From the NCBI GenBank assembly GCA_032821775.1, contig JAVLRN010000003.1, positions 1 to 64,000 of the forward strand: 64,000 nucleotides of DNA. Direction: 5' to 3'. This document shows, one piece after another, positions 1 through 15,751 of the stretch; position 1 is the stretch's first letter, and the number at the start of each line of letters is the position of its first letter. The position numbers and the translations under genes are program-made. The notes below the pieces were generated by a model. That model worked only from the letters and a program-made list of their open reading frames with translations, searched no databases and had not been told where the DNA came from. This DNA comes from Sanguinoderma infundibulare. Lineage: Eukaryota; Basidiomycota; Agaricomycetes; Polyporales; Polyporaceae.

Positions 1-131
1 CCAACCCTAACCCTAACCCTAACCCTAACCCTAACCCTAACCCTAACCCTAACCCTAACCCTAACCCTAACCCTAACCCTAACCCTAACCCTAACCCTAA
101 CCCTAACCCTAACCCTAACCCTAACCCTAAC
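1..131. repeat. Terminal telomere repeat (CCCTAA)n
   Basis: About 21 tandem copies of CCCTAA, nearly perfect, start at base 1 and stop at about 131 where unique sequence (TTTAAGTCACAG) begins. The C-rich strand reads 5' to 3' inward, so the G-rich TTAGGG strand runs to the left end, as expected for a true left chromosome end. The repeat is the vertebrate/filamentous-fungal type. The array is short and may be cut by the assembly rather than complete. Confidence 0.97.
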
Positions 132-591
132 CTTTAAGTCACAGTAGGCAGGCTCGATGATTTAGTCGAGAGCTTGGGGTAAACAGGCGTCGCACGATGA
201 TATTAACCCACGTGTTGAGTATACACGGCGCCTGGATGAGTAGACTCTTTACCGATCCGAGGACGTGGAGTGCTACCGCTTCGGCGGGGCCATCGGACTC
301 TGGAGTCGAAATATTCGTCCCGAGGGGGCGCGGACCCGGCCGGCAGCCTTTGCCGGCTAATTGGGCATTGGCTCGATGATATAAGGCCTTCGCGCTAGCC
401 TCCGAAAGGAGCACAAATAACGATTATACGGTTCAGTGGATAGTCGTGTTCGTTATCAAGACTTTGTGCCCCATTTCCCCACGAAATGTCAATCAGTAAA
501 CTGATACTAACCTGATACTACTCCTCGGTAGCAGGCCCTCAATTGCAAATCAAGGATACTCACGGCCCCGCTCACTGGGGCCGGCGCGGTC

Positions 592-737
592 TAACCCAAA
601 CCCTAACCGTGAGTCCTTATAAGTCGACTTAATCGTTGGCTTTGCTGAAGCGCTTATGTTTCAACCGGTTTAGCTAAACCAAACGCTAACCCTAACCGAC
701 CCCTAACCTTACCCGAACCCTAATCAAACCCTAACGG
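592..737 (+). repeat. Degenerate internal telomere-like patch in element 3' region
   Basis: Two clusters of CCCTAA-like words (592-608 and about 676-737) mix perfect CCCTAACC with variants such as CCCCTAACC, TTACCCG and CCCTAATC. The same patch recurs in each copy of the element (about +2835, +5670 and +8505). It is therefore part of the element and not a separate healing event in each copy. A role in pairing with the chromosome overhang or in binding telomere proteins is possible but is inference. Confidence 0.8.
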
Positions 738-813
738 AAGTACCCGTTGAGTAAGCGCGCGCTTAACCACCGCGCTTATTATGTAAGATTAAGCGCCTTA
801 AGTTCGTCTAAGG

Positions 814-868
814 GCACGTGACCATCTAAGCGCCGCAAGCGGCGCTTAGATTGCGACTGGTCACGTGC
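814..868 (+). repeat. Nested hairpin in element 3' region
   Basis: A perfect inverted repeat (ATCTAAGCGCCGC / GCGGCGCTTAGAT, 824-851, 2-nt loop) is enclosed by a second one (GCACGTGACC at 814-823 and GGTCACGTGC at 859-868). It recurs in every copy. Nearby are TAAGCGCGCGCTTA (752-765), GGCCCC/GGGGCC (564-582) and paired GCCGGC boxes at about 1020-1036. The 3' region is therefore unusually rich in structure, as would fit a 3' UTR recognised by its own reverse transcriptase. That role is inferred. Confidence 0.75.
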
Positions 869-1153
869 TAGGTCACGTGTCTCTCCATCTAATCTTGTCT
901 CCCGGATCACGGTCCGGAGGCGATAAGATAAGGATGAAGTGAACACGTGATGACCGGAAGGTCGGCCATCAGAACGTAAGCTTGATTAGTCCTCGGCCCG
1001 CGCCAGGCTATTCCAGACCGCCGGCTTCTCGGCCGGCATGATCACGCCATCGCTTCGGCACAGTTATTTGCAATTGCGCACGGACCATCGTACGATCGGT
1101 TTAATTCAGCCAATCGGAACTCCGTGTGAACGGACCAAACAACAGGATACTAA

Positions 1154-1226
1154 GGTTGCCCTGACGAGCTTATAAGCGAAACAGGCGAGCAGGAGGTCGG
1201 CAAGTCCACCTCCCCTGTTGGCAACC
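1154..1226 (+). ncRNA. Type-I hammerhead ribozyme, copy 1
   Basis: All conserved hammerhead parts are present in order. Stem I 5' strand is GGTTGCC (1154-1160). Core CTGACGA is at 1161-1167. Stem II is GCT-TATA-AGC (1168-1177). GAAA is at 1178-1181. Stem III pairs CAGG with CCTG (1182-1185/1214-1217) and GGAGGT with ACCTCC (1192-1197/1208-1213). Then come U16.1 and H17 (TT, 1218-1219) and the stem I 3' strand GGCAACC (1220-1226), which pairs perfectly with the first strand. Predicted self-cleavage is between 1219 and 1220. It lies on the same strand as the reverse transcriptase. Hammerheads are known in Penelope-like elements of many eukaryotes; here the motif sits about 40 nt before the telomeric 3' junction. 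Confidence 0.9.
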
Positions 1227-1244
1227 CCCTTTCGTAGCTAGTCG

Positions 1245-2738
1245 TTGCGTGTTCACTCCATCCTAACCCTAACCATTATACATGGAACCAAAGACTTGGT
1301 GCAAAAATTGAGCAAAATTAAACTCCCTAGACCGCCTTTTGGCGAACGGTGGTACTTTGTCACCGGCGACGTTGTCGCATTCTACCCAAACGTTCCCCTC
1401 GATCAATGTCTGGATATTGTATACCAGATGTGGCTAGACTTCACGTTTGATCCGTTAGAATTCAATGCAACGGTAGAGGTCGACGGCATAGTGCGAGGCT
1501 TAGCGGGCGCTGAGCAACGTGATTATGCTGATATCTTCCAAAAGTGTCTAAGGGAAGGCAACACGGATCTGATCTGTAAATATGGCAATAAATTATATAA
1601 GCAAAAGCGGGGCCTTGCTATGGGCGTCGCGGATTCTCCCGATCTAGCTAACCTTTTCGGTTGGCACTTCGAAAAGCTTAGCCAAATAATGACTGACGAG
1701 CGCACTGCATTTTACGGTCGTTACATCGACGATTGCTTCGGCATCGTTCGCGCCAAGAGTAGTGATGAGGCGCAACGATACCTTAGCAGCAAAATATCGT
1801 TCGATGGCTGTCAGATCCTGTGGGAAGCATCTGACTTGCGGTGTAACTTTTTAGACGCGACGTTTTACTTTGGGGGCAATGGCACCGCCCTAGAATGGCG
1901 TCCGTATCGCAAGCAGAAGAACCACCTTGAACGAATTCCTTGGATTTCTCACCATCCTCTCGATGTTAAACGCGGTACTTTTACCGGTGAGATGTCAAGG
2001 CTCGCCACGCTTAGTAGCACCTTTCCTGTCTACTTGGGAAGCGTCAAAGACTTGGTATGTCTTTACGTAAAGCGTGGTTACCCACAAGACCTGTTGAATA
2101 CTTGGGTGAGGAAACACCTTACCGAACGCTGGGACAATCGTTTACGTGAGAATAACGATCGCGAAACCGAAAGCGTCTTGGTCCTGAAATCCGAGTACAA
2201 CACGGCCTGGAATTGGTTCAATGCTACCGAGTTTGGAGCATCAATCTTAGATTACTGGAGAGATTGGCATGCGAATGCAGATCTCGGCCTACCCCGTCCC
2301 GGATTTCCCCCGGCGGAGTGGCCCCGGCCATCGCCAGCGACCCTGGGAAAGTCGCTGGCTGAGACGGAAGGAGCCTTCTTAACGGAAGTGCACACCCCGC
2401 CTTCAGGGAGTCTTTGGATTCCCGATATCCGGAAAATCAGTATGTTAGACCGTCGAGTTCTGGTTTCGCGAAAGCGAACCCGGAATATGTTCGACTTAAC
2501 AAGTCTTTGGAAAAAGATGGTGTTTCAGAAGTTAGATGAACGTGTACTGTCGGAACAAGACCCCGACCCGGCTGAAAAGCCAGCTCCAGTACGCGCACCT
2601 ATCGCGTCCAGCTCCCGTCATCAGCCCGCGGCCCCTGTCTCACAAGCCGCAGTGGGTGATTCTGATGATGTGATCTATGTCAATTACGACCCGTCTGGAC
2701 GTCGTTCACCTGGTCTTGGATTAGGCCATTTCGGTTGA
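1245..2738 (+). CDS. Penelope-like reverse transcriptase, N-terminally truncated (copy 1)
   Basis: The open frame runs through the telomeric tract; the first in-frame ATG is only at 1428, inside the RT domain, so no normal start exists. Counting residues from 1245: motif A is TGDVVAFYPNVP (Asp42), motif B is GLAMGVADSPDLANLF (about 123-138), motif C is YIDD (160-163). Motif D/E is FLDATFYF, and a thumb region follows with HPLDVKRGTFTGE and KRGYPQDLL. RT motifs 1 and 2 (the PKIHK-type region) are missing. The C-terminal part (EYNTAWNWF, SRKRTRNMFDLTSLWKK) resembles basidiomycete Coprina proteins as I remember them. There is no endonuclease domain. The catalytic aspartates are intact but the fingers are absent, so the copy is probably inactive unless an upstream exon is supplied elsewhere. 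Confidence 0.85.
   Translation: MRVHSILTLTIIHGTKDLVQKLSKIKLPRPPFGERWYFVTGDVVAFYPNVPLDQCLDIVYQMWLDFTFDPLEFNATVEVDGIVRGLAGAEQRDYADIFQKCLREGNTDLICKYGNKLYKQKRGLAMGVADSPDLANLFGWHFEKLSQIMTDERTAFYGRYIDDCFGIVRAKSSDEAQRYLSSKISFDGCQILWEASDLRCNFLDATFYFGGNGTALEWRPYRKQKNHLERIPWISHHPLDVKRGTFTGEMSRLATLSSTFPVYLGSVKDLVCLYVKRGYPQDLLNTWVRKHLTERWDNRLRENNDRETESVLVLKSEYNTAWNWFNATEFGASILDYWRDWHANADLGLPRPGFPPAEWPRPSPATLGKSLAETEGAFLTEVHTPPSGSLWIPDIRKISMLDRRVLVSRKRTRNMFDLTSLWKKMVFQKLDERVLSEQDPDPAEKPAPVRAPIASSSRHQPAAPVSQAAVGDSDDVIYVNYDPSGRRSPGLGLGHFG
1262..1274 (+). repeat. Telomeric junction tract between elements
   Basis: CCTAACCCTAACC (1262-1274) marks the 3' end of one element and the start of the next (ATTATACATGG...). 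Identical tracts lie at 4097-4109 and 6932-6944. On the minus strand, reading toward the telomere, each is GGTTAGGGTTAGG followed at once by ATGGAGTG, which is the first cDNA copied from the element's 3' end. This is the signature of priming from a chromosome 3' end. Confidence 0.9.
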
Positions 2739-4109
2739 ACAATGACATTAGTGAAAAGGCAATCCGGCCTCAGCAGATCGTAGCACTTCAATGTGCCAGG
2801 CTGAGCACTGCGGAATGGCGGATGGTGGCTCGGTTTATCCGGGCGTACCGGGGCATTGTGTCCTCGGTTGTAACCAACGTCCCACGGTGAATGGGAAAAC
2901 TGTACCCAACGATGGGCGGGTTTGGCACCCGCTTCGGCCGCTACGGCGGTGATTTCGATCGTATTGCTTTAAGTCACAGTAGGCAGGCTCGATGATTTAG
3001 TCGAGAGCTTGGGGTAAACAGGCGTCGCACGATGATATTAACCCACGTGTTGAGTATACACGGCGCCTGGATGAGTAGACTCTTTACCGATCCGAGGACG
3101 TGGAGTGCTACCGCTTCGGCGGGGCCATCGGACTCTGGAGTCGAAATATTCGTCCCGAGGGGGCGCGGACCCGGCCGGCAGCCTTTGCCGGCTAATTGGG
3201 CATTGGCTCGATGATATAAGGCCTTCGCGCTAGCCTCCGAAAGGAGCACAAATAACGATTATACGGTTCAGTGGATAGTCGTGTTCGTTATCAAGACTTT
3301 GTGCCCCATTTCCCCACGAAATGTCAATCAGTAAACTGATACTAACCTGATACTACTCCTCGGTAGCAGGCCCTCAATTGCAAATCAAGGATACTCACGG
3401 CCCCGCTCACTGGGGCCGGCGCGGTCTAACCCAAACCCTAACCGTGAGTCCTTATAAGTCGACTTAATCGTTGGCTTTGCTGAAGCGCTTATGTTTCAAC
3501 CGGTTTAGCTAAACCAAACGCTAACCCTAACCGACCCCTAACCTTACCCGAACCCTAATCAAACCCTAACGGAAGTACCCGTTGAGTAAGCGCGCGCTTA
3601 ACCACCGCGCTTATTATGTAAGATTAAGCGCCTTAAGTTCGTCTAAGGGCACGTGACCATCTAAGCGCCGCAAGCGGCGCTTAGATTGCGACTGGTCACG
3701 TGCTAGGTCACGTGTCTCTCCATCTAATCTTGTCTCCCGGATCACGGTCCGGAGGCGATAAGATAAGGATGAAGTGAACACGTGATGACCGGAAGGTCGG
3801 CCATCAGAACGTAAGCTTGATTAGTCCTCGGCCCGCGCCAGGCTATTCCAGACCGCCGGCTTCTCGGCCGGCATGATCACGCCATCGCTTCGGCACAGTT
3901 ATTTGCAATTGCGCACGGACCATCGTACGATCGGTTTAATTCAGCCAATCGGAACTCCGTGTGAACGGACCAAACAACAGGATACTAAGGTTGCCCTGAC
4001 GAGCTTATAAGCGAAACAGGCGAGCAGGAGGTCGGCAAGTCCACCTCCCCTGTTGGCAACCCCCTTTCGTAGCTAGTCGTTGCGTGTTCACTCCATCCTA
4101 ACCCTAACC
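1275..4109 (+). mobile_element. Telomere-attached Penelope-like retroelement, copy 1 (Coprina-like, EN-minus)
   Basis: This is a 2,835-bp unit: truncated reverse-transcriptase frame, about 230 bp of spacer, then the structured 3' region with hammerhead, ending in a telomeric tract. Copies 1 to 3 have the same length and are almost base-identical. No GIY-YIG endonuclease is encoded. Endonuclease-lacking Penelope-like elements that prime on telomere ends are known as Athena (rotifers) and Coprina (basidiomycetes), and orientation, junctions and protein all fit Coprina. Because all copies share the same 5' start, the array probably grew by recombination or by repeated use of the same truncated template. 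Four independent truncations at one base are unlikely. Confidence 0.85.
3989..4061 (+). ncRNA. Type-I hammerhead ribozyme, copy 2
   Basis: This is identical to copy 1, shifted by 2,835 bp. Core CTGACGA is at 3996-4002, GAAA at 4013-4016, and the 7-bp stem I is intact. Predicted cleavage is between 4054 and 4055. Confidence 0.9.
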
Positions 4110-5573
4110 ATTATACATGGAACCAAAGACTTGGTGCAAAAATTGAGCAAAATTAAACTCCCTAGACCGCCTTTTGGCGAACGGTGGTACTTTGTCACCG
4201 GCGACGTTGTCGCATTCTACCCAAACGTTCCCCTCGATCAATGTCTGGATATTGTATACCAGATGTGGCTAGACTTCACGTTTGATCCGTTAGAATTCAA
4301 TGCAACGGTAGAGGTCGACGGCATAGTGCGAGGCTTAGCGGGCGCTGAGCAACGTGATTATGCTGATATCTTCCAAAAGTGTCTAAGGGAAGGCAACACG
4401 GATCTGATCTGTAAATATGGCAATAAATTATATAAGCAAAAGCGGGGCCTTGCTATGGGCGTCGCGGATTCTCCCGATCTAGCTAACCTTTTCGGTTGGC
4501 ACTTCGAAAAGCTTAGCCAAATAATGACTGACGAGCGCACTGCATTTTACGGTCGTTACATCGACGATTGCTTCGGCATCGTTCGCGCCAAGAGTAGTGA
4601 TGAGGCGCAACGATACCTTAGCAGCAAAATATCGTTCGATGGCTGTCAGATCCTGTGGGAAGCATCTGACTTGCGGTGTAACTTTTTAGACGCGACGTTT
4701 TACTTTGGGGGCAATGGCACCGCCCTAGAATGGCGTCCGTATCGCAAGCAGAAGAACCACCTTGAACGAATTCCTTGGATTTCTCACCATCCTCTCGATG
4801 TTAAACGCGGTACTTTTACCGGTGAGATGTCAAGGCTCGCCACGCTTAGTAGCACCTTTCCTGTCTACTTGGGAAGCGTCAAAGACTTGGTATGTCTTTA
4901 CGTAAAGCGTGGTTACCCACAAGACCTGTTGAATACTTGGGTGAGGAAACACCTTACCGAACGCTGGGACAATCGTTTACGTGAGAATAACGATCGCGAA
5001 ACCGAAAGCGTCTTGGTCCTGAAATCCGAGTACAACACGGCCTGGAATTGGTTCAATGCTACCGAGTTTGGAGCATCAATCTTAGATTACTGGAGAGATT
5101 GGCATGCGAATGCAGATCTCGGCCTACCCCGTCCCGGATTTCCCCCGGCGGAGTGGCCCCGGCCATCGCCAGCGACCCTGGGAAAGTCGCTGGCTGAGAC
5201 GGAAGGAGCCTTCTTAACGGAAGTGCACACCCCGCCTTCAGGGAGTCTTTGGATTCCCGATATCCGGAAAATCAGTATGTTAGACCGTCGAGTTCTGGTT
5301 TCGCGAAAGCGAACCCGGAATATGTTCGACTTAACAAGTCTTTGGAAAAAGATGGTGTTTCAGAAGTTAGATGAACGTGTACTGTCGGAACAAGACCCCG
5401 ACCCGGCTGAAAAGCCAGCTCCAGTACGCGCACCTATCGCGTCCAGCTCCCGTCATCAGCCCGCGGCCCCTGTCTCACAAGCCGCAGTGGGTGATTCTGA
5501 TGATGTGATCTATGTCAATTACGACCCGTCTGGACGTCGTTCACCTGGTCTTGGATTAGGCCATTTCGGTTGA
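4080..5573 (+). CDS. Penelope-like reverse transcriptase, N-terminally truncated (copy 2)
   Basis: The translation is identical to copy 1: the catalytic motif A aspartate and the YIDD box are present, motifs 1-2 are missing, and there is no initiator ATG before the RT core. The same frame reads through the telomeric tract (residues 5-11). The stop is followed by about 230 bp of spacer before the next 3' region. Confidence 0.85.
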   Translation: MRVHSILTLTIIHGTKDLVQKLSKIKLPRPPFGERWYFVTGDVVAFYPNVPLDQCLDIVYQMWLDFTFDPLEFNATVEVDGIVRGLAGAEQRDYADIFQKCLREGNTDLICKYGNKLYKQKRGLAMGVADSPDLANLFGWHFEKLSQIMTDERTAFYGRYIDDCFGIVRAKSSDEAQRYLSSKISFDGCQILWEASDLRCNFLDATFYFGGNGTALEWRPYRKQKNHLERIPWISHHPLDVKRGTFTGEMSRLATLSSTFPVYLGSVKDLVCLYVKRGYPQDLLNTWVRKHLTERWDNRLRENNDRETESVLVLKSEYNTAWNWFNATEFGASILDYWRDWHANADLGLPRPGFPPAEWPRPSPATLGKSLAETEGAFLTEVHTPPSGSLWIPDIRKISMLDRRVLVSRKRTRNMFDLTSLWKKMVFQKLDERVLSEQDPDPAEKPAPVRAPIASSSRHQPAAPVSQAAVGDSDDVIYVNYDPSGRRSPGLGLGHFG

Positions 5574-6944
5574 ACAATGACATTAGTGAAAAGGCAATCC
5601 GGCCTCAGCAGATCGTAGCACTTCAATGTGCCAGGCTGAGCACTGCGGAATGGCGGATGGTGGCTCGGTTTATCCGGGCGTACCGGGGCATTGTGTCCTC
5701 GGTTGTAACCAACGTCCCACGGTGAATGGGAAAACTGTACCCAACGATGGGCGGGTTTGGCACCCGCTTCGGCCGCTACGGCGGTGATTTCGATCGTATT
5801 GCTTTAAGTCACAGTAGGCAGGCTCGATGATTTAGTCGAGAGCTTGGGGTAAACAGGCGTCGCACGATGATATTAACCCACGTGTTGAGTATACACGGCG
5901 CCTGGATGAGTAGACTCTTTACCGATCCGAGGACGTGGAGTGCTACCGCTTCGGCGGGGCCATCGGACTCTGGAGTCGAAATATTCGTCCCGAGGGGGCG
6001 CGGACCCGGCCGGCAGCCTTTGCCGGCTAATTGGGCATTGGCTCGATGATATAAGGCCTTCGCGCTAGCCTCCGAAAGGAGCACAAATAACGATTATACG
6101 GTTCAGTGGATAGTCGTGTTCGTTATCAAGACTTTGTGCCCCATTTCCCCACGAAATGTCAATCAGTAAACTGATACTAACCTGATACTACTCCTCGGTA
6201 GCAGGCCCTCAATTGCAAATCAAGGATACTCACGGCCCCGCTCACTGGGGCCGGCGCGGTCTAACCCAAACCCTAACCGTGAGTCCTTATAAGTCGACTT
6301 AATCGTTGGCTTTGCTGAAGCGCTTATGTTTCAACCGGTTTAGCTAAACCAAACGCTAACCCTAACCGACCCCTAACCTTACCCGAACCCTAATCAAACC
6401 CTAACGGAAGTACCCGTTGAGTAAGCGCGCGCTTAACCACCGCGCTTATTATGTAAGATTAAGCGCCTTAAGTTCGTCTAAGGGCACGTGACCATCTAAG
6501 CGCCGCAAGCGGCGCTTAGATTGCGACTGGTCACGTGCTAGGTCACGTGTCTCTCCATCTAATCTTGTCTCCCGGATCACGGTCCGGAGGCGATAAGATA
6601 AGGATGAAGTGAACACGTGATGACCGGAAGGTCGGCCATCAGAACGTAAGCTTGATTAGTCCTCGGCCCGCGCCAGGCTATTCCAGACCGCCGGCTTCTC
6701 GGCCGGCATGATCACGCCATCGCTTCGGCACAGTTATTTGCAATTGCGCACGGACCATCGTACGATCGGTTTAATTCAGCCAATCGGAACTCCGTGTGAA
6801 CGGACCAAACAACAGGATACTAAGGTTGCCCTGACGAGCTTATAAGCGAAACAGGCGAGCAGGAGGTCGGCAAGTCCACCTCCCCTGTTGGCAACCCCCT
6901 TTCGTAGCTAGTCGTTGCGTGTTCACTCCATCCTAACCCTAACC
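4110..6944 (+). mobile_element. Telomere-attached Penelope-like retroelement, copy 2
   Basis: Same layout and length as copy 1. It starts directly after CCTAACCCTAACC (4097-4109) and ends with the same tract at 6932-6944. I saw no base difference from copy 1 in the parts compared by eye. Confidence 0.85.
6824..6896 (+). ncRNA. Type-I hammerhead ribozyme, copy 3
   Basis: Identical to copy 1, shifted by 5,670 bp. All core and stem bases are conserved. Predicted cleavage is between 6889 and 6890. Confidence 0.9.
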
Positions 6945-8408
6945 ATTATACATGGAACCAAAGACTTGGTGCAAAAATTGAGCAAAATTAAACTCCCTAG
7001 ACCGCCTTTTGGCGAACGGTGGTACTTTGTCACCGGCGACGTTGTCGCATTCTACCCAAACGTTCCCCTCGATCAATGTCTGGATATTGTATACCAGATG
7101 TGGCTAGACTTCACGTTTGATCCGTTAGAATTCAATGCAACGGTAGAGGTCGACGGCATAGTGCGAGGCTTAGCGGGCGCTGAGCAACGTGATTATGCTG
7201 ATATCTTCCAAAAGTGTCTAAGGGAAGGCAACACGGATCTGATCTGTAAATATGGCAATAAATTATATAAGCAAAAGCGGGGCCTTGCTATGGGCGTCGC
7301 GGATTCTCCCGATCTAGCTAACCTTTTCGGTTGGCACTTCGAAAAGCTTAGCCAAATAATGACTGACGAGCGCACTGCATTTTACGGTCGTTACATCGAC
7401 GATTGCTTCGGCATCGTTCGCGCCAAGAGTAGTGATGAGGCGCAACGATACCTTAGCAGCAAAATATCGTTCGATGGCTGTCAGATCCTGTGGGAAGCAT
7501 CTGACTTGCGGTGTAACTTTTTAGACGCGACGTTTTACTTTGGGGGCAATGGCACCGCCCTAGAATGGCGTCCGTATCGCAAGCAGAAGAACCACCTTGA
7601 ACGAATTCCTTGGATTTCTCACCATCCTCTCGATGTTAAACGTGGTACTTTTACCGGTGAGATGTCAAGGCTCGCCACGCTTAGTAGCACCTTTCCTGTC
7701 TACTTGGGAAGCGTCAAAGACTTGGTATGTCTTTACGTAAAGCGTGGTTACCCACAAGACCTGTTGAATACTTGGGTGAGGAAACACCTTACCGAACGCT
7801 GGGACAATCGTTTACGTGAGAATAACGATCGCGAAACCGAAAGCGTCTTGGTCCTGAAATCCGAGTACAACACGGCCTGGAATTGGTTCAATGCTACCGA
7901 GTTTGGAGCATCAATCTTAGATTACTGGAGAGATTGGCATGCGAATGCAGATCTCGGCCTACCCCGTCCCGGATTTCCCCCGGCGGAGTGGCCCCGGCCA
8001 TCGCCAGCGACCCTGGGAAAGTCGCTGGCTGAGACGGAAGGAGCCTTCTTAACGGAAGTGCACACCCCGCCTTCAGGGAGTCTTTGGATTCCCGATATCC
8101 GGAAAATCAGTATGTTAGACCGTCGAGTTCTGGTTTCGCGAAAGCGAACCCGGAATATGTTCGACTTAACAAGTCTTTGGAAAAAGATGGTGTTTCAGAA
8201 GTTAGATGAACGTGTACTGTCGGAACAAGACCCCGACCCGGCTGAAAAGCCAGCTCCAGTACGCGCACCTATCGCGTCCAGCTCCCGTCATCAGCCCGCG
8301 GCCCCTGTCTCACAAGCCGCAGTGGGTGATTCTGATGATGTGATCTATGTCAATTACGACCCGTCTGGACGTCGTTCACCTGGTCTTGGATTAGGCCATT
8401 TCGGTTGA
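6915..8408 (+). CDS. Penelope-like reverse transcriptase, N-terminally truncated (copy 3)
   Basis: The protein is identical to copies 1 and 2. The only base difference I found is at 7643 (T, against C at 1973 and 4808), which changes an Arg codon CGC to CGT without changing the residue. Same missing RT motifs 1-2 and same intact YIDD. Confidence 0.85.
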   Translation: MRVHSILTLTIIHGTKDLVQKLSKIKLPRPPFGERWYFVTGDVVAFYPNVPLDQCLDIVYQMWLDFTFDPLEFNATVEVDGIVRGLAGAEQRDYADIFQKCLREGNTDLICKYGNKLYKQKRGLAMGVADSPDLANLFGWHFEKLSQIMTDERTAFYGRYIDDCFGIVRAKSSDEAQRYLSSKISFDGCQILWEASDLRCNFLDATFYFGGNGTALEWRPYRKQKNHLERIPWISHHPLDVKRGTFTGEMSRLATLSSTFPVYLGSVKDLVCLYVKRGYPQDLLNTWVRKHLTERWDNRLRENNDRETESVLVLKSEYNTAWNWFNATEFGASILDYWRDWHANADLGLPRPGFPPAEWPRPSPATLGKSLAETEGAFLTEVHTPPSGSLWIPDIRKISMLDRRVLVSRKRTRNMFDLTSLWKKMVFQKLDERVLSEQDPDPAEKPAPVRAPIASSSRHQPAAPVSQAAVGDSDDVIYVNYDPSGRRSPGLGLGHFG

Positions 8409-9659
8409 ACAATGACATTAGTGAAAAGGCAATCCGGCCTCAGCAGATCGTAGCACTTCAATGTGCCAGGCTGAGCACTGCGGAATGGCGGATGGTGGCT
8501 CGGTTTATCCGGGCGTACCGGGGCATTGTGTCCTCGGTTGTAACCAACGTCCCACGGTGAATGGGAAAACTGTACCCAACGATGGGCGGGTTTGGCACCC
8601 GCTTCGGCCGCTACGGCGGTGATTTCGATCGTATTGCTTTAAGTCACAGTAGGCAGGCTCGATGATTTAGTCGAGAGCTTGGGGTAAACAGGCGTCGCAC
8701 GATGATATTAACCCACGTGTTGAGTATACACGGCGCCTGGATGAGTAGACTCTTTACCGATCCGAGGACGTGGAGTGCTACCGCTTCGGCGGGGCCATCG
8801 GACTCTGGAGTCGAAATATTCGTCCCGAGGGGGCGCGGACCCGGCCGGCAGCCTTTGCCGGCTAATTGGGCATTGGCTCGATGATATAAGGCCTTCGCGC
8901 TAGCCTCCGAAAGGAGCACAAATAACGATTATACGGTTCAGTGGATAGTCGTGTTCGTTATCAAGACTTTGTGCCCCATTTCCCCACGAAATGTCAATCA
9001 GTAAACTGATACTAACCTGATACTACTCCTCGGTAGCAGGCCCTCAATTGCAAATCAAGGATACTCACGGCCCCGCTCACTGGGGCCGGCGCGGTCTAAC
9101 CCAAACCCTAACCGTGAGTCCTTATAAGTCGACTTAATCGTTGGCTTTGCTGAAGCGCTTATGTTTCAACCGGTTTAGCTAAACCAAACGCTAACCCTAA
9201 CCGACCCCTAACCTTACCCGAACCCTAATCAAACCCTAACGGAAGTACCCGTTGAGTAAGCGCGCGCTTAACCACCGCGCTTATTATGTAAGATTAAGCG
9301 CCTTAAGTTCGTCTAAGGGCACGTGACCATCTAAGCGCCGCAAGCGGCGCTTAGATTGCGACTGGTCACGTGCTAGGTCACGTGTTCTTTATCTAATCTT
9401 GTCTAACCGGATCACGGTCCGGCAGTGATAAGATAAAGGATGAAGTGAACACGTGATGACCGGAAGGTCGGCCAACAGAACGTAAGCTTGATTAGTCCTC
9501 GGCCCGCGCCAGGCTACTCTAGACCGCCGGCTTCTCGGCCGGCATGATCACGCCATCGCTTCGGCACAGTTATTTGCAATTGCGCACGGACCATCGTACG
9601 ATCGGTTTAATTCAGCCAATCGGAACTCCGTGTGAACGGACCAAACAACAGGATACTAA

Positions 9660-9732
9660 GGTTGCCCTGACGAGCTTATAAGCGAAACAGGCGAGCAGGA
9701 GGTCGGCAAGTCCACCTCCCCTGTTGGCAACC
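9660..9732 (+). ncRNA. Type-I hammerhead ribozyme, copy 4 (diverged element)
   Basis: Same bases as the other copies. The ribozyme is unchanged although the surrounding 3' region of this internal element has accumulated changes. Stem I GGTTGCC/GGCAACC, core CTGACGA, GAAA and the two-part stem III are all intact. Predicted cleavage is between 9725 and 9726. Confidence 0.88.
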
Positions 9733-9767
9733 CCCTTTCGTAGCTAGTTGTTGCGTGTTCACTCCAT

Positions 9768-9776
9768 CCTAACCCT
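9768..9776 (+). repeat. Ancestral telomere-healing junction
   Basis: CCTAACCCT lies between the internal element and chromosomal sequence that starts CAGCCCCAGCG. On the minus strand a protein-coding frame runs directly into AGGGTTAGG. This is the expected scar of a chromosome break healed by telomere addition, later used as the anchor of the retroelement array. Confidence 0.8.
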
Positions 9777-10765: not shown

Positions 10766-13700
10766 TTACATCGGGATCGCCGGCATTGCAGGGTCGCGCT
10801 CCGGCTCCATCTCCTCCGCAACGCTGCTCAGACCGTCGCCCTCAGATCCCACGTTCTTCTTCTTCTTCGACTTCGGCGACGAACTCGGGCTTCCGCCGCC
10901 CTCCCCAATGGGCGTCGCACCTCCCGCAGACGAGTGAGAACGCTTCCGACCCGTGCCTGTGAGACGCATCAGTGCAATCTCCACACTCAGCAGATGCATA
11001 AACACATACCACTGCCTTTCGCCGTCTTTGCGGCTCTGGAGGGCCCTGCGCCCTCAGCCGCGCCTGCACCGCTGAGACCGGCTCCTCCAGACCCGCTCGC
11101 TTGTGCATTTGCTTCCTGCACACGCGCCCTGGACCGCGTCGCCGTGCCGCCTGCCTGAGTTGCGCGAGTCGCCGCCGCACCACCCTGACCGCGGCTGACT
11201 GGCCTGGGCTTCGGACCGCGTGCCTTTGGCGGTGGGACGTCGTCCTGCTCGATCTGAGGGGCGGGGTCGTCGACGAAGGGGTCCGAGGCGTCTTGCATGA
11301 CGATGTCCCTGGTCTCAGTGGGGGCCGGCTCGGCGATCTCGGAGATAGCGGATGGGGGAGGAGATGCGGGGGCTGCGGCAGTGGGTGCCGCGGTGGCAGA
11401 GTCGCTGTCAAATCGAGTGAGTGTGGTGTGTTCAGATGGAGCGGGGAGGAGTGTGGGTACGCACATGTGTTCGAGCGGGGCGGGGGTGTTGAGGACGGGG
11501 GGAATGGTGATTGCGGGGTTGGGGGAGGCGGCTGCTTTGCCTTTGCCCTTGGTGGACTGCTGCTCAGCGGCGGGAGCGTTGTGTGCAGACTGACCTTCGT
11601 CTGAGTGGGCGTCGTTGTCGTCATCGTCGTCATCGCCGTTGTCGTCCTCGTCGTCCTCGTCGTCCTCGTCTTCGGAGTTGGAGTCGTTTACAGGGCGAGC
11701 TTGCCGCTTGCTGGATGGGGTATAAGCCGCGGAGTCCTTTGTTTTGCGGGACTTGGAGCGGGGAGCGGCAAGGAACTTCTTCCAGTCGTAGTCCTGGGGG
11801 CGAATGGAGCGGTCGTTGGGGTCGGCGCCGTTAGCCTTGCGGATTGCGCGGAATGTGGTGTATTTTTTGGGGTCTGCGTCGCGGAATTCTTCGAGGGAGG
11901 GGTAAGCGTGTTGAGAGTCAGCGCGGGGGACCTTGGGGATGTGGATGGGGCGCTGGTTCTGAGGGGTGGGGAGGACGACTGGTGCGCCGGGGGGAGCGGT
12001 GTGCTGGGCCTCTATCATCTGGCCGTTGTCGTGCATTGTCTGTGGGGGAGAAAGGTGAGTTTAGAGAGAGGAGAGGAATGAGAGGAGAACGTGCCTGGAG
12101 GAGTTCCTCGAGCTTGATTGCGACGGGTGCGGGGAGGCCGCGGGGGAGGTTTTGTGCGATGCCGTTGCGGGCGCAGGCTGCGCCGGTGACTGCGGTGATG
12201 ACGCGATGCATCTGGCGAGTGCAGTCCTGGCGGCGGGAGACGCTTTCGAGCTCGAGGACTGCGTTGTCGAGGGTGATGCGGGGGCGGCCGGCGTTTCTTT
12301 TTTCGCCTACTCTGATGAGGTTGTCGAGGATGTCGTTGTCCCAGTTTGCCCATTTGAAGACTGTGTTGGCCTGTGTCTTGCCAGGGCGGTCGGCGGAGAC
12401 CTCGACTGCGATGGTTGAGTTGCAGTAGTTTGAGGCGAAGTCGACGAGGGACTGGCGGAGGTCGCGGCCTGCGCTGTAGTCGAGGATGCGGGCGGTGGTT
12501 GCGAGTGTGTGCTGGTATCCGTAGTAGCACAGGATAGCGTAGGTGAGGAAGGTGTCTGGAGCGCTCCTCGGCTTGACGTCCCTCCAGCTAGCGGCGTGGC
12601 GGAACATGAAGAGGAGGGCGGAGTTTTTCTGGACGCCGCCGATGGGGAGGCCGGGGAAGATCTTGCAGACGTTGTCGAACTGGGAGAGGGCGTCGTCGTT
12701 GGCGGAGGAGGATGATGCAGCCTTTGGGGCCGGCTTCTGTGCCCCCATGATGTTGCGGATGTATTCGGTCATGGTGGAGATGGTCTTGAGGTCTGCGGGG
12801 GTGAAGGAGAGCTCGAGGTCGTTTTCGTCGATGATGTCTGGGGGCGACATCTTCGACTTGTCTGTTTCGGCCCTGGGGTTGACCTTGCTGATGGAGGAGA
12901 GCCAGGCGGAGTAGCCGATGGAGTAGAAGCGATCTATTGCGGGGGTGGTGAACTCAGCAAGGAGGATTGCGACCTCTGCGATGGCGGGGATGTTGTTGAA
13001 GAGCCAGCGGAAGAACTGGATGTGATGTGAGCGAGAGTTGTGGGGGAGACAGTTGAGTGCGAAGCGTACCTCTGTGCCGACCTTGGTGTTTGCGCGGAAC
13101 ATTGTGTCGCGCGTGAGGAAGTGGACGGCATATGAGCCGTAATCCCAGAAGGCTATTTCGTCCGGGCGGCGGATGTTTGAGTCGACGAGGGGGTCGAGGG
13201 TGCGGACGATCTGTGGGTGGGGGTGAGTATTGAATGTGATAAGAGCGGAACAGAATGTGAAGTGCGATGAAGTATGAAGTCACTGGACAAGACTCTAGTC
13301 CGCGCGGACACACGAGTGGTGTGTCCGCGCAGACACAAGGGTGGTGTGTCTGCGCAGATACAAGGGTGGTGTGTCTGCGCGGACACAAGGGTCGTGTGTC
13401 TGCGCAGACACAAGGGTGGTGTGTCTGCGCGGACACAAGGGTCGTGTGTCTGCGCGGACACAAGGGTCGTGTGTCTGCGCAGACACAAGGGTCGTGTGTC
13501 CGCGCGGACACAAGGGTCGTGTGTCTGCGCGGACACAAGGGTGGTGTGTCCGCGCGGACACAAGGGTCGTATGTCCGCGCAGACACAGGGGTCGTGTCTC
13601 CGCGCGGACACAAGGGTCGTGTCTCCGCGCGGACACAAGGGTCGTGTGTCCGCGCAGACACACGAGTGCTGTGTCCGCGCAGACACACGAAGGCCGTGTC

Positions 13701-15751
13701 TGCGCAGACACGTCGGGACAAATAAATCATGAAGTACACTCACCCACTGGATCGTCGGCCCGTACTGCTCCAGGATCCGCCGCAGATCCTGCAGGAACGA
13801 CACCGTCGGCCACGGCAGGTCGTACGCCTTCTCCGCATACACCATCTCGTGCGTCCACCGCAACCGCCGCGCAGCTCCAGCCAACGCCTTCACATCCTTC
13901 TCCTCGCCCGACCCAGCCTCGGGCTCCCACGTCCCAGTCACGTTCCCGTTCTCGTCCTCCGTCTGCATGTACGCACCAAGCCGCTCCTCCCAGTCCGCAA
14001 TCAAGATCCGGTCCACAGCCTTCTTGTACTTCTTCAGCGCACCCGCCAGGATCGCGTTCTCCCGGTGCCCCAGATAGTTGATCGCACCCCGCGGCCGAAG
14101 CAGAAGCACGTACTGCTCGTCAATCTTCTTCAGCACGTCCTGCGTCCACACAATGTCCCGCACCCCTGCTCCAAACACCTCCCCCTCCAGCTTCTGGTAC
14201 CGCCCCATAATCTCCTTCTCATACTTCCCCTGCAGCTCCCGCCGGTCCCGCTCAAGCAACTGCTCCCACGTCTTGCCCCGGTGGTGCTTCGCCACAAGCT
14301 CCGCAGGGACCGCGACCACGTCCTTCGGGTCGTCCACCCAGATCTTCACAACGTCCCGCAGAAGCTGCCCCTCCTCGTCCTCCGCGTCATCCACGTCCGC
14401 GAACTCCGTCGGACTCGCGATCAGCCGCATCCGCCGCATCCCGTCCCGCACAAGCCGCGCCCAGAACTGTACACACATCTTCAGCACACAACCACGCACT
14501 AGCTCAATTCATCAATATACAAACTCACCTCCCCGATCGCACACGACTGGTTGTGCGCTCGCGTCGGCGGCTTCAGCACAGAGTCGAACAGCTTCACAGT
14601 CAAGATCTGCCCGTTCCGGTACGCAGAAAACGTCGCCAAGTCCGTCACAATCTCCCACAGCGCTGGCGTCGTCAGCAGGTACGACGGCGGGAACGCACTC
14701 TGCTGCGCCGCCGTCATCACAGGCCGCAGAATCGCATTGCTCCACTTCCCCATGTATGGCGTCATCTCCCTGCCCCCTGCATGCGTCTTCTTCCACTCCA
14801 CAACATTCGCCTCCATCGCCGCAAGGTACCCAAACAGCCGCTCCTCCTGCGTCGCACGAAGGCTCGGCAGGTACTCGTTCTGCGACAAGTGCCGGCACAG
14901 CGCTTCCCCGCACTCCTCTAAATCATTCACATCATCACTTCACCACATTCTACAAAAAAAAAGGACATCCACATACCTGCAATGAACAGGTGCACGCACC
15001 ATTGCCCCGCACTCCCAATCTTCCCATCCACAACGTCCAATGCAAGCCGAACCGTCTCCAGCTCCTCCATCTGCTTCTTCGACCCCCCGTCCCCCAGCTT
15101 GTTCGTCACCCGCGCCAGCCCCTCCGCCTTCTTCTCCCGCTCCTTCTCCAGCCGCGCCTTCCACGCCGCCATTGCCTTCGCCCGGTGCTGCCCACTGAAA
15201 AAATCAACCACCAGCGGCGGCAGATCCACCCGCGACTTGAATCGCAGCTCGGGGAGCTCCTCCCACGGAACCGCCTCGTCCGTCTTCTTCGCATACGTCC
15301 CCTCCACCAGGTCCTCGACACGCACCTGCATCAGCAGCGGCGCCGTGTTCGGGTGCTTACCTTCTGTGTCGAACGACCGCACGAGCTTGGCCACCGACGC
15401 CGCCACCACTCCCCGCTGGTTCCATGTCCCCCACCGGTACGTGACCCCCGCCGGCTCCGTCAGCACGTCCAGCCGACACTTCCCCAGGAACGCCTTCTCC
15501 TCCTCGCGCTGGCGCGCCCGGATCGCTTGCTCCTGCGGATGCGGAGCCGTCTCCTCCTCCTTCACCTTCGGCATCCGCACCCCAGACACCTGTACAAACG
15601 TCAGTTTTCCTCACCTATCACACACCCATCTGTACTGTACCTTGCCCTCGTCCTGTCATTCCACAATATAATTAGTAGCAGCCACAATCCACGCAGCTGA
15701 TCCACGCACCTCAGTCCCCTGGGTTTTTTTCGATTTACCACGAGGAGGCAT
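10766..15751 (-). CDS. Intact 8-exon subtelomeric gene, 1353-aa protein of unknown function
   Basis: Exons (minus strand): 15751-15710, 15589-14977, 14917-14529, 14478-13744, 13210-13070, 13015-12095, 12039-11010, 10956-10766. They total 4,062 nt with all phases consistent; the intron after exon 6 is GC-AG. The N-terminus is a short basic MPPRGKSKK. A segment with FFSGQHRAKAM near residue 140 recalls the GQHR box of ParB/DGQHR-type proteins; this is weak. The middle is globular and rich in W, Y and charged residues. The C-terminal third is disordered: an Asp/Glu run, then Ala/Pro-rich sequence, then a basic KSKKKK tail, which suggests a nuclear protein. Two 5' copies lie upstream, so this is a subtelomeric family. 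Intron 4 (13211-13743) contains a minisatellite. I do not recognise the function. Confidence 0.8.
13300..13715 (+). repeat. 25-bp palindromic minisatellite inside intron 4
   Basis: About 17 units of 25 bp. Each has an 18-bp palindrome (TGTGTCTGCGCAGACACA or its CCGCGCGG variant) plus a 7-bp spacer AGGGTCG or AGGGTGG. The array fills most of a 533-nt intron, against 45-80 nt for other introns here. The unit length is not a multiple of three, yet all frames stay open through it, which makes long false reading frames on both strands. The spacer reads in the opposite direction to the three other arrays in the window. Confidence 0.92.

What the first reader, a model, noticed from the sequence alone, without database searches (positions are those of the whole stretch)
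1154..1226. Complete hammerhead ribozyme core in every copy of a telomere-capping fungal retroelement
Seen directly: perfect 7-bp stem I, CUGACGA core, stem II, GAAA, two-part stem III and a UU cleavage dinucleotide, in the element's sense strand, at 1154, 3989, 6824 and 9660. It is unchanged in the diverged fourth copy. Hammerheads are known in Penelope-like elements with pseudo-LTRs. Here the ribozyme lies about 40 nt before the telomeric 3' junction. Cutting would separate tandem transcripts into unit-length RNAs whose 3' end is just upstream of, and whose 5' end just includes, the telomere-complementary tract. That could process array transcripts into templates or couple RNA processing to telomere priming. 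I do not know whether a hammerhead in Coprina-type elements has been reported.
Basis: partly seen in the sequence, partly recalled or inferred. Interest (0 to 1): 0.88.

Follow-up and report, generated by a model that had tools for sequence, protein, structure and literature searches.

The report
Hammerhead ribozyme in telomere-capping fungal retroelement
A self-cutting RNA motif of a known kind sits just before the telomere-matching end of a retroelement that caps fungal chromosomes; the copies suggest that the RNAs used for insertion were not cut there.

Summary
A complete type I hammerhead motif (7-bp stem I, CUGACGA, short stem II, GAAA, stem III, GUU) lies at 1154, 3989, 6824 and 9660 in the sense strand of a telomere-end array. 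The element is an endonuclease-less Penelope-like element (PLE): a relative's reverse transcriptase folds like telomerase, and no GIY-YIG domain was detected. The host looks like a polypore.
The fetched contig ends hold 51 complete copies (12 distinct); 49 keep the core. Two subfamilies, 59.9% identical in 3' noncoding columns, share 37 of 38 required bases, while stem III has changed and still pairs.
The kind is not new. Hammerheads in PLEs are in print, and so is 'hammerhead, then telomere-complementary repeats' (rotifer Terminons).
The proposed role, cutting to make insertion templates, is not supported. In 55 of 55 copies the 3' end lies beyond the cut, in the telomere-complementary tail; 0 of 55 5' ends lie within 3 nt of the cut. 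Best reading: folded hammerhead plus tail is the 3' priming module, and cutting (untested) separates read-through units.
Two tail-only insertions, one per subfamily, begin at the edge of stem I (one exactly, one within 5 nt), as if reverse transcription stopped at the folded ribozyme. Suggestive only.

The parts
1..131 (+). terminal telomere repeats (CCCTAA)n of the contig end
   Evidence: telomere run 5-130
132..1270 (+). outermost, 5'-truncated PLE copy (subfamily A)
   Evidence: matches the reference copy from position 3856 to its end
1154..1226 (+). type I hammerhead motif, copy 1
1154..1160 (+). stem I, 5' strand (pairs with 1220-1226)
1161..1167 (+). CUGACGA core
1168..1177 (+). stem II hairpin, 3 bp with UAUA loop
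1178..1181 (+). GAAA of the core
1181..1218 (+). stem III with its loop (proximal pairs 1181-1185 with 1214-1218)
1219..1220 (+). predicted cleavage site (after U1219)
   Evidence: hammerhead numbering (established knowledge, recalled) on the sequence; activity not tested
1220..1274 (+). tail: 3' strand of stem I, a spacer, then the telomere-complementary tract at about 1262-1274 where insertions end
1271..4105 (+). tandem unit 1 (2835 nt; 5'-truncated PLE copy)
1275..2738 (+). C-terminal part of the reverse transcriptase ORF, 5'-truncated (the ORF as listed starts at a TTG in the tail, 1245)
3989..4061 (+). hammerhead motif, copy 2
4106..6940 (+). tandem unit 2
6824..6896 (+). hammerhead motif, copy 3
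6941..9776 (+). tandem unit 3, the one next to the subtelomere
9660..9732 (+). hammerhead motif, copy 4 (same 73 nt)
683..735 (+). internal telomere-like tract upstream of the hammerhead; 5' boundary of 14 of 55 copies in the fetched ends

Best explanation
This is an endonuclease-less, telomere-capping Penelope-like element of a polypore-type fungus, with a conserved type I hammerhead whose cut site lies 50-53 nt before the end of its RNA. Inferred mechanism: the folded hammerhead with the short tail after it is the 3' priming module. The CCCUAACCCU end of the tail pairs with the G-rich chromosome overhang, the telomerase-like reverse transcriptase starts there and copies upstream through the hammerhead, and the cDNA caps the chromosome. 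Self-cutting is not a step in making the inserted copy. It more likely splits read-through RNAs of head-to-tail copies into separate 5'-hydroxyl mRNAs, and removes the priming tail from the RNA it cuts. Shown here: the motif, its conservation between two subfamilies, the uncut 3' ends of the insertions examined. Inferred: folding in the cell, cutting, and the order of steps.
For: Motif in both subfamilies; the minimum-energy fold is the hammerhead for 7 of 12 distinct sequences, which stand for 46 of 51 copies. A against B in the 3' noncoding region: required hammerhead bases 37 of 38 identical, stem III and its loop 18 of 35, the rest 838 of 1282. Of perfect blocks in the last 700 nt, the hammerhead 5' half (36 nt) ties for longest. 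96.1% of cells pair against 23-53% with the partner slid; pair 30-63 is A-U in A and G-C in B. All 55 3' ends run on into the tail and a CCCTAA tract. The 5 subfamily B full-length copies (4 contig ends) all have the same join, tail with 9 nt of telomeric sequence then TTATCC, whereas the 31 other B joins mostly vary between 5 and 35 nt, which fits one RNA running uncut through both hammerheads. Best structural matches of a relative's RT are telomerases. In the anole PLE uncut RNA is the dominant insertion substrate and RT starts downstream of the hammerhead (PMC11167929).
Against: Cutting is not shown. No RNA data. No copies from other species could be fetched. 5 of 12 distinct sequences (5 of 51 copies) have a minimum-energy fold that is not the hammerhead. 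Stem II is 3 bp, and only 2 bp in 9 of 51 copies, including both that flank the full-length A copy at C4L; 2 of 51 have G8 changed to A. Covariation is one pair, in effect one A/B event: against shuffles, cells paired and covariation score are reached by 7 of 500, but pairs changed on both sides by 413 of 500 and further pair types by 500 of 500. A cut RNA would lack the priming tail, so the absence of cut 3' ends is expected of any telomere-primed mechanism and says nothing against cutting of other RNAs. The constant B joins could also come from gene conversion among chromosome ends.
Confidence: 0.6

Rival explanations
1. One reading: the hammerhead cuts tandem transcripts into unit-length RNAs, and these cut units are the templates for telomere addition.
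For: Tandem units with a hammerhead in each. Cut units would carry the telomere-complementary tract near their 5' end.
Against: All 55 copies end beyond the cut site. 0 of 55 5' ends lie within 3 nt of the cut. The tract ends up at the wrong (5') end of a cut unit for priming. In the anole PLE, hammerhead catalytic mutants do not affect insertion in vitro (PMC11167929).
Confidence: 0.1
2. Circular template: cut units are ligated into circles, and reverse transcription around the circle gives the perfect tandem arrays with identical joins (units of 2835, 5071, 1980 and 304 nt).
For: Arrays with the same join repeated: 2835 x3 in the window, 5071 x2 at C2R, 1980 x2 and 304 x2 at C4R. A circle keeps the tail next to the hammerhead, so 3' ends would look uncut. 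Retrozymes propagate through circular RNAs (PMC4918200, title and start of abstract in search listing only).
Against: Unequal exchange or break-induced replication between subtelomeric repeats makes the same arrays, and chromosome ends here do change as DNA: C67R and C4R share 5994 nt at 99.75%, with C67R cut short and capped by telomere. No circular RNA was seen; none could be sought.
Confidence: 0.1
3. The hammerhead is kept only as an RNA fold (a binding site for the element's protein or a boundary that keeps the tail single-stranded); it no longer cuts in the cell.
For: The tail-only copies begin at the stem I edge. PMC6431247 proposes that the ribozyme fold exposes the telomeric stretch (passage). 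Weak stem II.
Against: The core CUGACGA, GAAA and a UU site are kept in 49 of 51 copies and in both subfamilies. A pure fold would not need the catalytic bases.
Confidence: 0.15
4. Chance resemblance or hitch-hiking sequence without function.
For: No Rfam match. Copies are recent. Folding energy is not exceptional.
Against: 1 of 150 shuffles has a descriptor hit. Subfamily comparison.
Confidence: 0.02

Closest known systems
Terminons / Athena: telomere-associated endonuclease-less PLEs of bdelloid rotifers (PMC6431247, passages; Arkhipova et al. 2017 not held)
   Same: Hammerhead immediately upstream of reverse-complement telomeric repeats at the RNA 3' end; attachment to chromosome ends; 5' truncation by telomeric repeats; head-to-tail arrays; endonuclease-less PLE RT.
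   Different: Smaller here (about 5 kb with one ORF of about 1200 aa; no second ORF of 400 aa or more in the two reference copies), fungal host, CCCTAA repeats.
Coprina elements of basidiomycetes (Gladyshev and Arkhipova 2007; not held, recalled)
   Same: Fungal, telomere-associated, endonuclease-less PLE; C-rich telomere strand at the 3' end; 5'-truncated copies capping chromosomes.
   Different: No Coprina sequence was available to compare, so membership is by kind and not by a tree.
Hammerheads of PLE pseudo-LTRs (Cervera and de la Pena 2014, recalled; PMC6155905 and PMC7761336, passages)
   Same: Type I, minimal form without the usual loop contacts, in the repeat flanking the ORF.
   Different: Here stem III with its loop is long (38 nt). 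Animal versions usually lack it (PMC7761336, passage); the 2014 abstract, from recall, gives fungal and protist versions a stable monomer form.
Poseidon of the green anole, PAc (PMC11167929, parts 1-2 of 4 read)
   Same: Hammerhead cut site lies upstream of the RT start site; insertion uses mainly uncut RNA; tandem copies.
   Different: PAc has a GIY-YIG endonuclease, AT-rich targets and a start site inside the next ORF; here the start is a telomere-complementary tract.

Membership tests
type I hammerhead ribozyme | Stem I open; CUGANGA-stem II-GAAA-stem III-NUH connectivity | tested here: met
   in the window x4; core kept in 49 of 51 complete copies.
type I hammerhead ribozyme | Match to the curated covariance model (Rfam RF00163) | tested here: not met
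   0 at gathering score in the window and in the genome (73 of 8341 candidates scored). The model has 45 positions; the motif here has 70-73 nt with a long stem III. This is a curators' threshold more than a defining trait; it lowers the claim of a standard Rfam-type member, not of hammerhead architecture.
type I hammerhead ribozyme | Self-cleavage at the NUH site | not testable with these tools
   Needs in vitro transcription or 5'-end mapping.
type I hammerhead ribozyme | Helices supported by covariation | tested here: inconclusive
   12 distinct sequences: 1 of 15 pairs changed on both sides (A-U to G-C between subfamilies), stem I never varies; slid controls fall to 23-53% paired, but two of five measures do not exceed shuffles.
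Penelope-like element | Telomerase-like reverse transcriptase | tested here: met
Penelope-like element | Pseudo-LTR arrangement: partial copy, full ORF, then the same 3' region | tested here: met
   A full-length or near-full-length copy is preceded by a partial copy bounded in the internal tract at C12R, C4L, C17R, C18L and C14R; at C2R by a longer partial copy.
endonuclease-less, telomere-associated PLE (Coprina/Athena kind) | No GIY-YIG domain | tested here: met
   No GIY-YIG match at E<=1 in the two ORFs of 1194-1197 aa tested, nor at E<=0.01 in 26 relatives (several are partial). The same scan misses RVT_1 in those two ORFs, so a diverged domain could be missed too.
endonuclease-less, telomere-associated PLE (Coprina/Athena kind) | 3' end joined to C-strand telomere repeats, at chromosome ends | tested here: met
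   55 of 55 3' junctions; copies at 18 contig ends; all 52 PLE cores lie within about 20 kb of a contig end.
Coprina family proper | Groups with Coprina in an RT tree | not tested
   No named Coprina sequence was at hand; among the best 120 of 282 relatives listed, those with a species name are agaricomycete proteins at 40-48% identity.
retrozyme | Small non-coding unit bounded by hammerheads, moving through circular RNA | tested here: inconclusive
   A 304-nt hammerhead unit is tandem x2 at C4R, but it is a truncated 3' end of subfamily B; circular RNA not testable.

The most novel reading that the evidence does not exclude
The ribozyme fold leaves a mark in the genome: reverse transcription that starts at the chromosome end sometimes stops at the edge of hammerhead stem I and yields a 'strong-stop' insertion of the 43-46-nt tail alone. 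One such copy exists in each subfamily: 5026 in B exactly, 4953-4957 in A. Together with the internal telomere-like tract where 14 of 55 copies begin, the pseudo-LTR would be a two-ended module: a telomere seed at its outer edge and a folded ribozyme with a telomere primer-binding tail at its inner edge, used uncut as template and cut only for messenger RNAs.
Probability: 0.25. Interest if true: 0.6.

Novelty: new member of a known kind. Interest (0 to 1): 0.38.

Why it matters
[quoted passage not shown] A fungus with about 50 copies in two subfamilies, all near chromosome ends with readable 5' and 3' junctions, lets that question be put to the sequence. Here the insertions examined record RNAs that were not cut at the 3' hammerhead, and two tail-only insertions may record the fold itself. 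If the fungus can be grown, cleavage, uncut templates and telomere addition can be tested in one organism.

Tried and rejected
External DNA relatives: RT alignment A1 (22 sequences) against viral contigs and genome contigs gave 56 and 77 pattern matches but no relative; these collections are of viruses and of bacteria and archaea.

Rfam in three ways found no hammerhead. The single RF00163 hit in the genome (C1:1272651, 18.9 bits, E 1.96) is under the cut-off, and the same search rings in 11 of 14 control genomes, so it was set aside.

Cut-site 5' ends: looked for and not found (0 of 55 within 3 nt). A transcription start as the cause of the common 5' boundary was considered and set aside, because the boundary varies within the internal telomere-like tract from end to end. 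The apparent core mutation at C5:4056760 proved to be a copy truncated inside the core next to telomere repeats.

Tail-only copies: the chance of two of nine near-end truncations meeting at one landmark is 0.0006 if exact and 0.014 for a 5-nt window (the nine distances were typed in, leaving out tract-bounded, full-length and duplicated copies), and the landmark was chosen after seeing the data.

Rows dropped: BLAST pieces of 66 nt or less with under 86% identity (telomere repeats) and pieces overlapping a better one by more than 25 nt. The contig ends were fetched because they matched motif and tail, so copies lacking both are under-sampled, though all 21 RT matches lie in the ends examined. 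The tail patterns missed 5 diverged B tails that one search has.

PDB sequence search with the RT alignment: no match. One of three folds (L025:4226-4295) was the wrong stretch and is not used; the B fold comes. In one search the telomere length was mis-parsed for subfamily A (printed as 1) and for one B junction with a variant base (printed as 0); these were read by eye from the last column.

Literature: Cervera and de la Pena 2014, Gladyshev and Arkhipova 2007, Arkhipova et al. 2017 and a fourth paper looked up by identifier are not held; statements about the first two are recall. Searches made for a fungal or Coprina hammerhead. In what I saw of the six papers opened (passages of five, half of PMC11167929) none described one; this is no claim that none is in print.

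Full report
Observation. The window is the left end of contig C3 of a 48.9-Mb genome in 87 contigs. It starts with about 131 bases of telomere, followed by one truncated copy and three head-to-tail units of 2835-2836 nt. The same 73-nt hammerhead motif stands near the 3' end of all four, at 1154, 3989, 6824 and 9660. Connectivity, core bases and the GUU site are right for a type I hammerhead, and the minimum-energy fold of the 73 nt is that structure. Position 7 is C instead of the usual U, which hammerheads tolerate (recalled). The descriptor finds 4 sites in the window; 1 of 150 dinucleotide shuffles has one. Rfam models do not find it, and its folding energy is not exceptional.

What the element is. 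The window's units carry only the C-terminal part of a reverse transcriptase. Longer copies elsewhere in the genome have ORFs of 1194 and 1198 aa, with no GIY-YIG match, though also no RVT_1 match at E<=1. The predicted structure of a relative (P0012, mean pLDDT 78) matches telomerases first. Copies lie near contig ends with their sense 3' end toward the contig interior and joined to C-strand telomere repeats. This is an endonuclease-less, telomere-associated PLE, of the Coprina kind by host and layout. The host is probably a polypore: for one neighbouring gene (BCAS3 WD40) the nearest named proteins are from Ganoderma sinense (58% over 37% of the query) and Fomes fomentarius (61% over 52%).

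How widespread. A pattern search of the genome gave 42 exact cores, 7 with one mismatch and 3 with two. Four further hits with three mismatches lie inside C1 and are of the order of the reversed-pattern control, 3 and 3. In the fetched ends there are 51 complete hammerheads, 12 distinct. Of these, 49 keep CUGACGA and GAAA, 2 have G8 changed to A, and 9 (these two among them) have lost one stem II pair. 7 of the 12 sequences, standing for 46 of 51 copies, have the hammerhead as minimum-energy fold; 5 do not. Two subfamilies, A (the window) and B, are 59.9% identical over the columns of the 3' noncoding alignment and 69.0% without gaps. Over the hammerhead's required parts they share 37 of 38 bases, over stem III and its loop 18 of 35, elsewhere 838 of 1282. 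Equally conserved stretches exist near the internal telomere-like tract (two windows, another 36-nt block), so the hammerhead is one of a few conserved islands and not the only one. Proximal stem III is ACAGG/CCUGU in A and ACGGG/CCCGU in B. The pair count gives 96.1% paired cells against 23-53% for slid partners, with one pair changed on both sides; two of its five measures do not exceed shuffles, and the structure was read from these same sequences. The hammerhead is best read as under selection as a structure, on evidence from one genome.

What the insertions say about cutting. The cut lies 50 nt (A) or 53 nt (B) before the end of the reference copies. All 55 copies examined end in the tail (A 4993-4995, B 5068-5071) and run into a CCCTAA tract of varying length. 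Hence the RNAs that primed on chromosome ends were not cut at their 3' hammerhead. None of 55 5' ends lies within 3 nt of the cut. In the 5 B full-length copies (4 contig ends) the join between the preceding copy's tail and the 5' end is always the same 9 nt of telomeric sequence followed by TTATCC, while the 31 other B joins mostly vary between 5 and 35 nt. This is easiest if the template ran uncut through both hammerheads; gene conversion between ends is the alternative. It agrees with the anole PLE, where uncut RNA is the dominant substrate, RT starts downstream of the hammerhead and catalytic mutants do not affect insertion in vitro (PMC11167929).

Two tail-only copies. Tails were searched genome-wide by pattern: 19 of A and 31 of B. 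Of these 50, 2 stand without any hammerhead, one per subfamily. The B one (C14) begins at 5026, the first base after the stem I strand GGCAACC. The A one (C5) begins there or up to 4 nt further, because telomere and element share letters. A reverse transcriptase stopping at the folded stem I would give this. It is two events with a landmark chosen afterwards (0.0006 to 0.014), so it is a lead.

Internal telomere-like tract. 14 of 55 copies begin inside a degenerate CCCTAA tract about 500-570 nt upstream of the 3' edge of the hammerhead, including 6 of the 17 that directly follow a telomere run. Of the 11 such copies that begin in the last 1200 nt, 6 fall in the tract (binomial 2e-5, post hoc). 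The boundary within the tract varies. C67R and C4R are 99.75% identical over 5994 nt, but C67R's telomere starts in this tract where C4R continues. This looks like telomere healing at a built-in seed, and it sets the outer edge of the pseudo-LTR.

Known or new. PLE hammerheads are known (PMC6155905: all available PLE sequences show them; PMC7761336: role still a mystery; passages only). The arrangement hammerhead then reverse-complement telomeric repeats at the 3' end is described for Terminons, with the idea that the fold exposes the telomeric stretch and that cutting is auxiliary (PMC6431247, passages). This finding is a fungal member of that kind, with unusually readable junctions. The evidence that templates were uncut at the 3' hammerhead, and the two tail-only copies, are what it adds.

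Limits. No RNA, no second species, no activity test. All statements on copies rest on one assembly and on ends fetched because they matched the motif; sister contigs such as C67 may be a second haplotype.

Noticed in passing
window 683-735 and homologous places at other contig ends: Degenerate internal CCCTAA tract in the element's 3' region; 14 of 55 copies have their 5' boundary in it, 6 of them directly after telomere repeats: looks like a built-in telomere seed.
   Followed up: partly
L022 oriented 1846-1888 (C5) and L043 oriented 140-185 (C14): Tail-only insertions of 43 and 46 nt, one per subfamily, beginning at the 3' edge of hammerhead stem I.
   Followed up: yes
L026 (two), L028, L027, L024, L032, L042: Seven PLE copies follow not telomere repeats but a recurring sequence ending CTCAACCCCCCTGTTCAT or CTCAACACCCCCCTTCAT, joined to different truncation points: a template jump or another subtelomeric element.
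   Followed up: partly
L030 (C4 right end): A 304-nt hammerhead unit repeated twice, beside a 1980-nt unit repeated twice: small retrozyme-like tandem units derived from truncated copies.
   Followed up: partly
window about 13300-13712; also next to PLE joins at C4R and C67R: 25-bp minisatellite with GTGTCTGCGCGGACACAAGGG-like units, open in several frames on both strands; similar units border PLE copies at C4R and C67R.
   Followed up: no
L031 (C2 left end) 1-1090: A telomere run at 959-1090 lies behind 958 nt of other sequence at the contig start, so this end is not simply telomere-terminated in the assembly.
   Followed up: no
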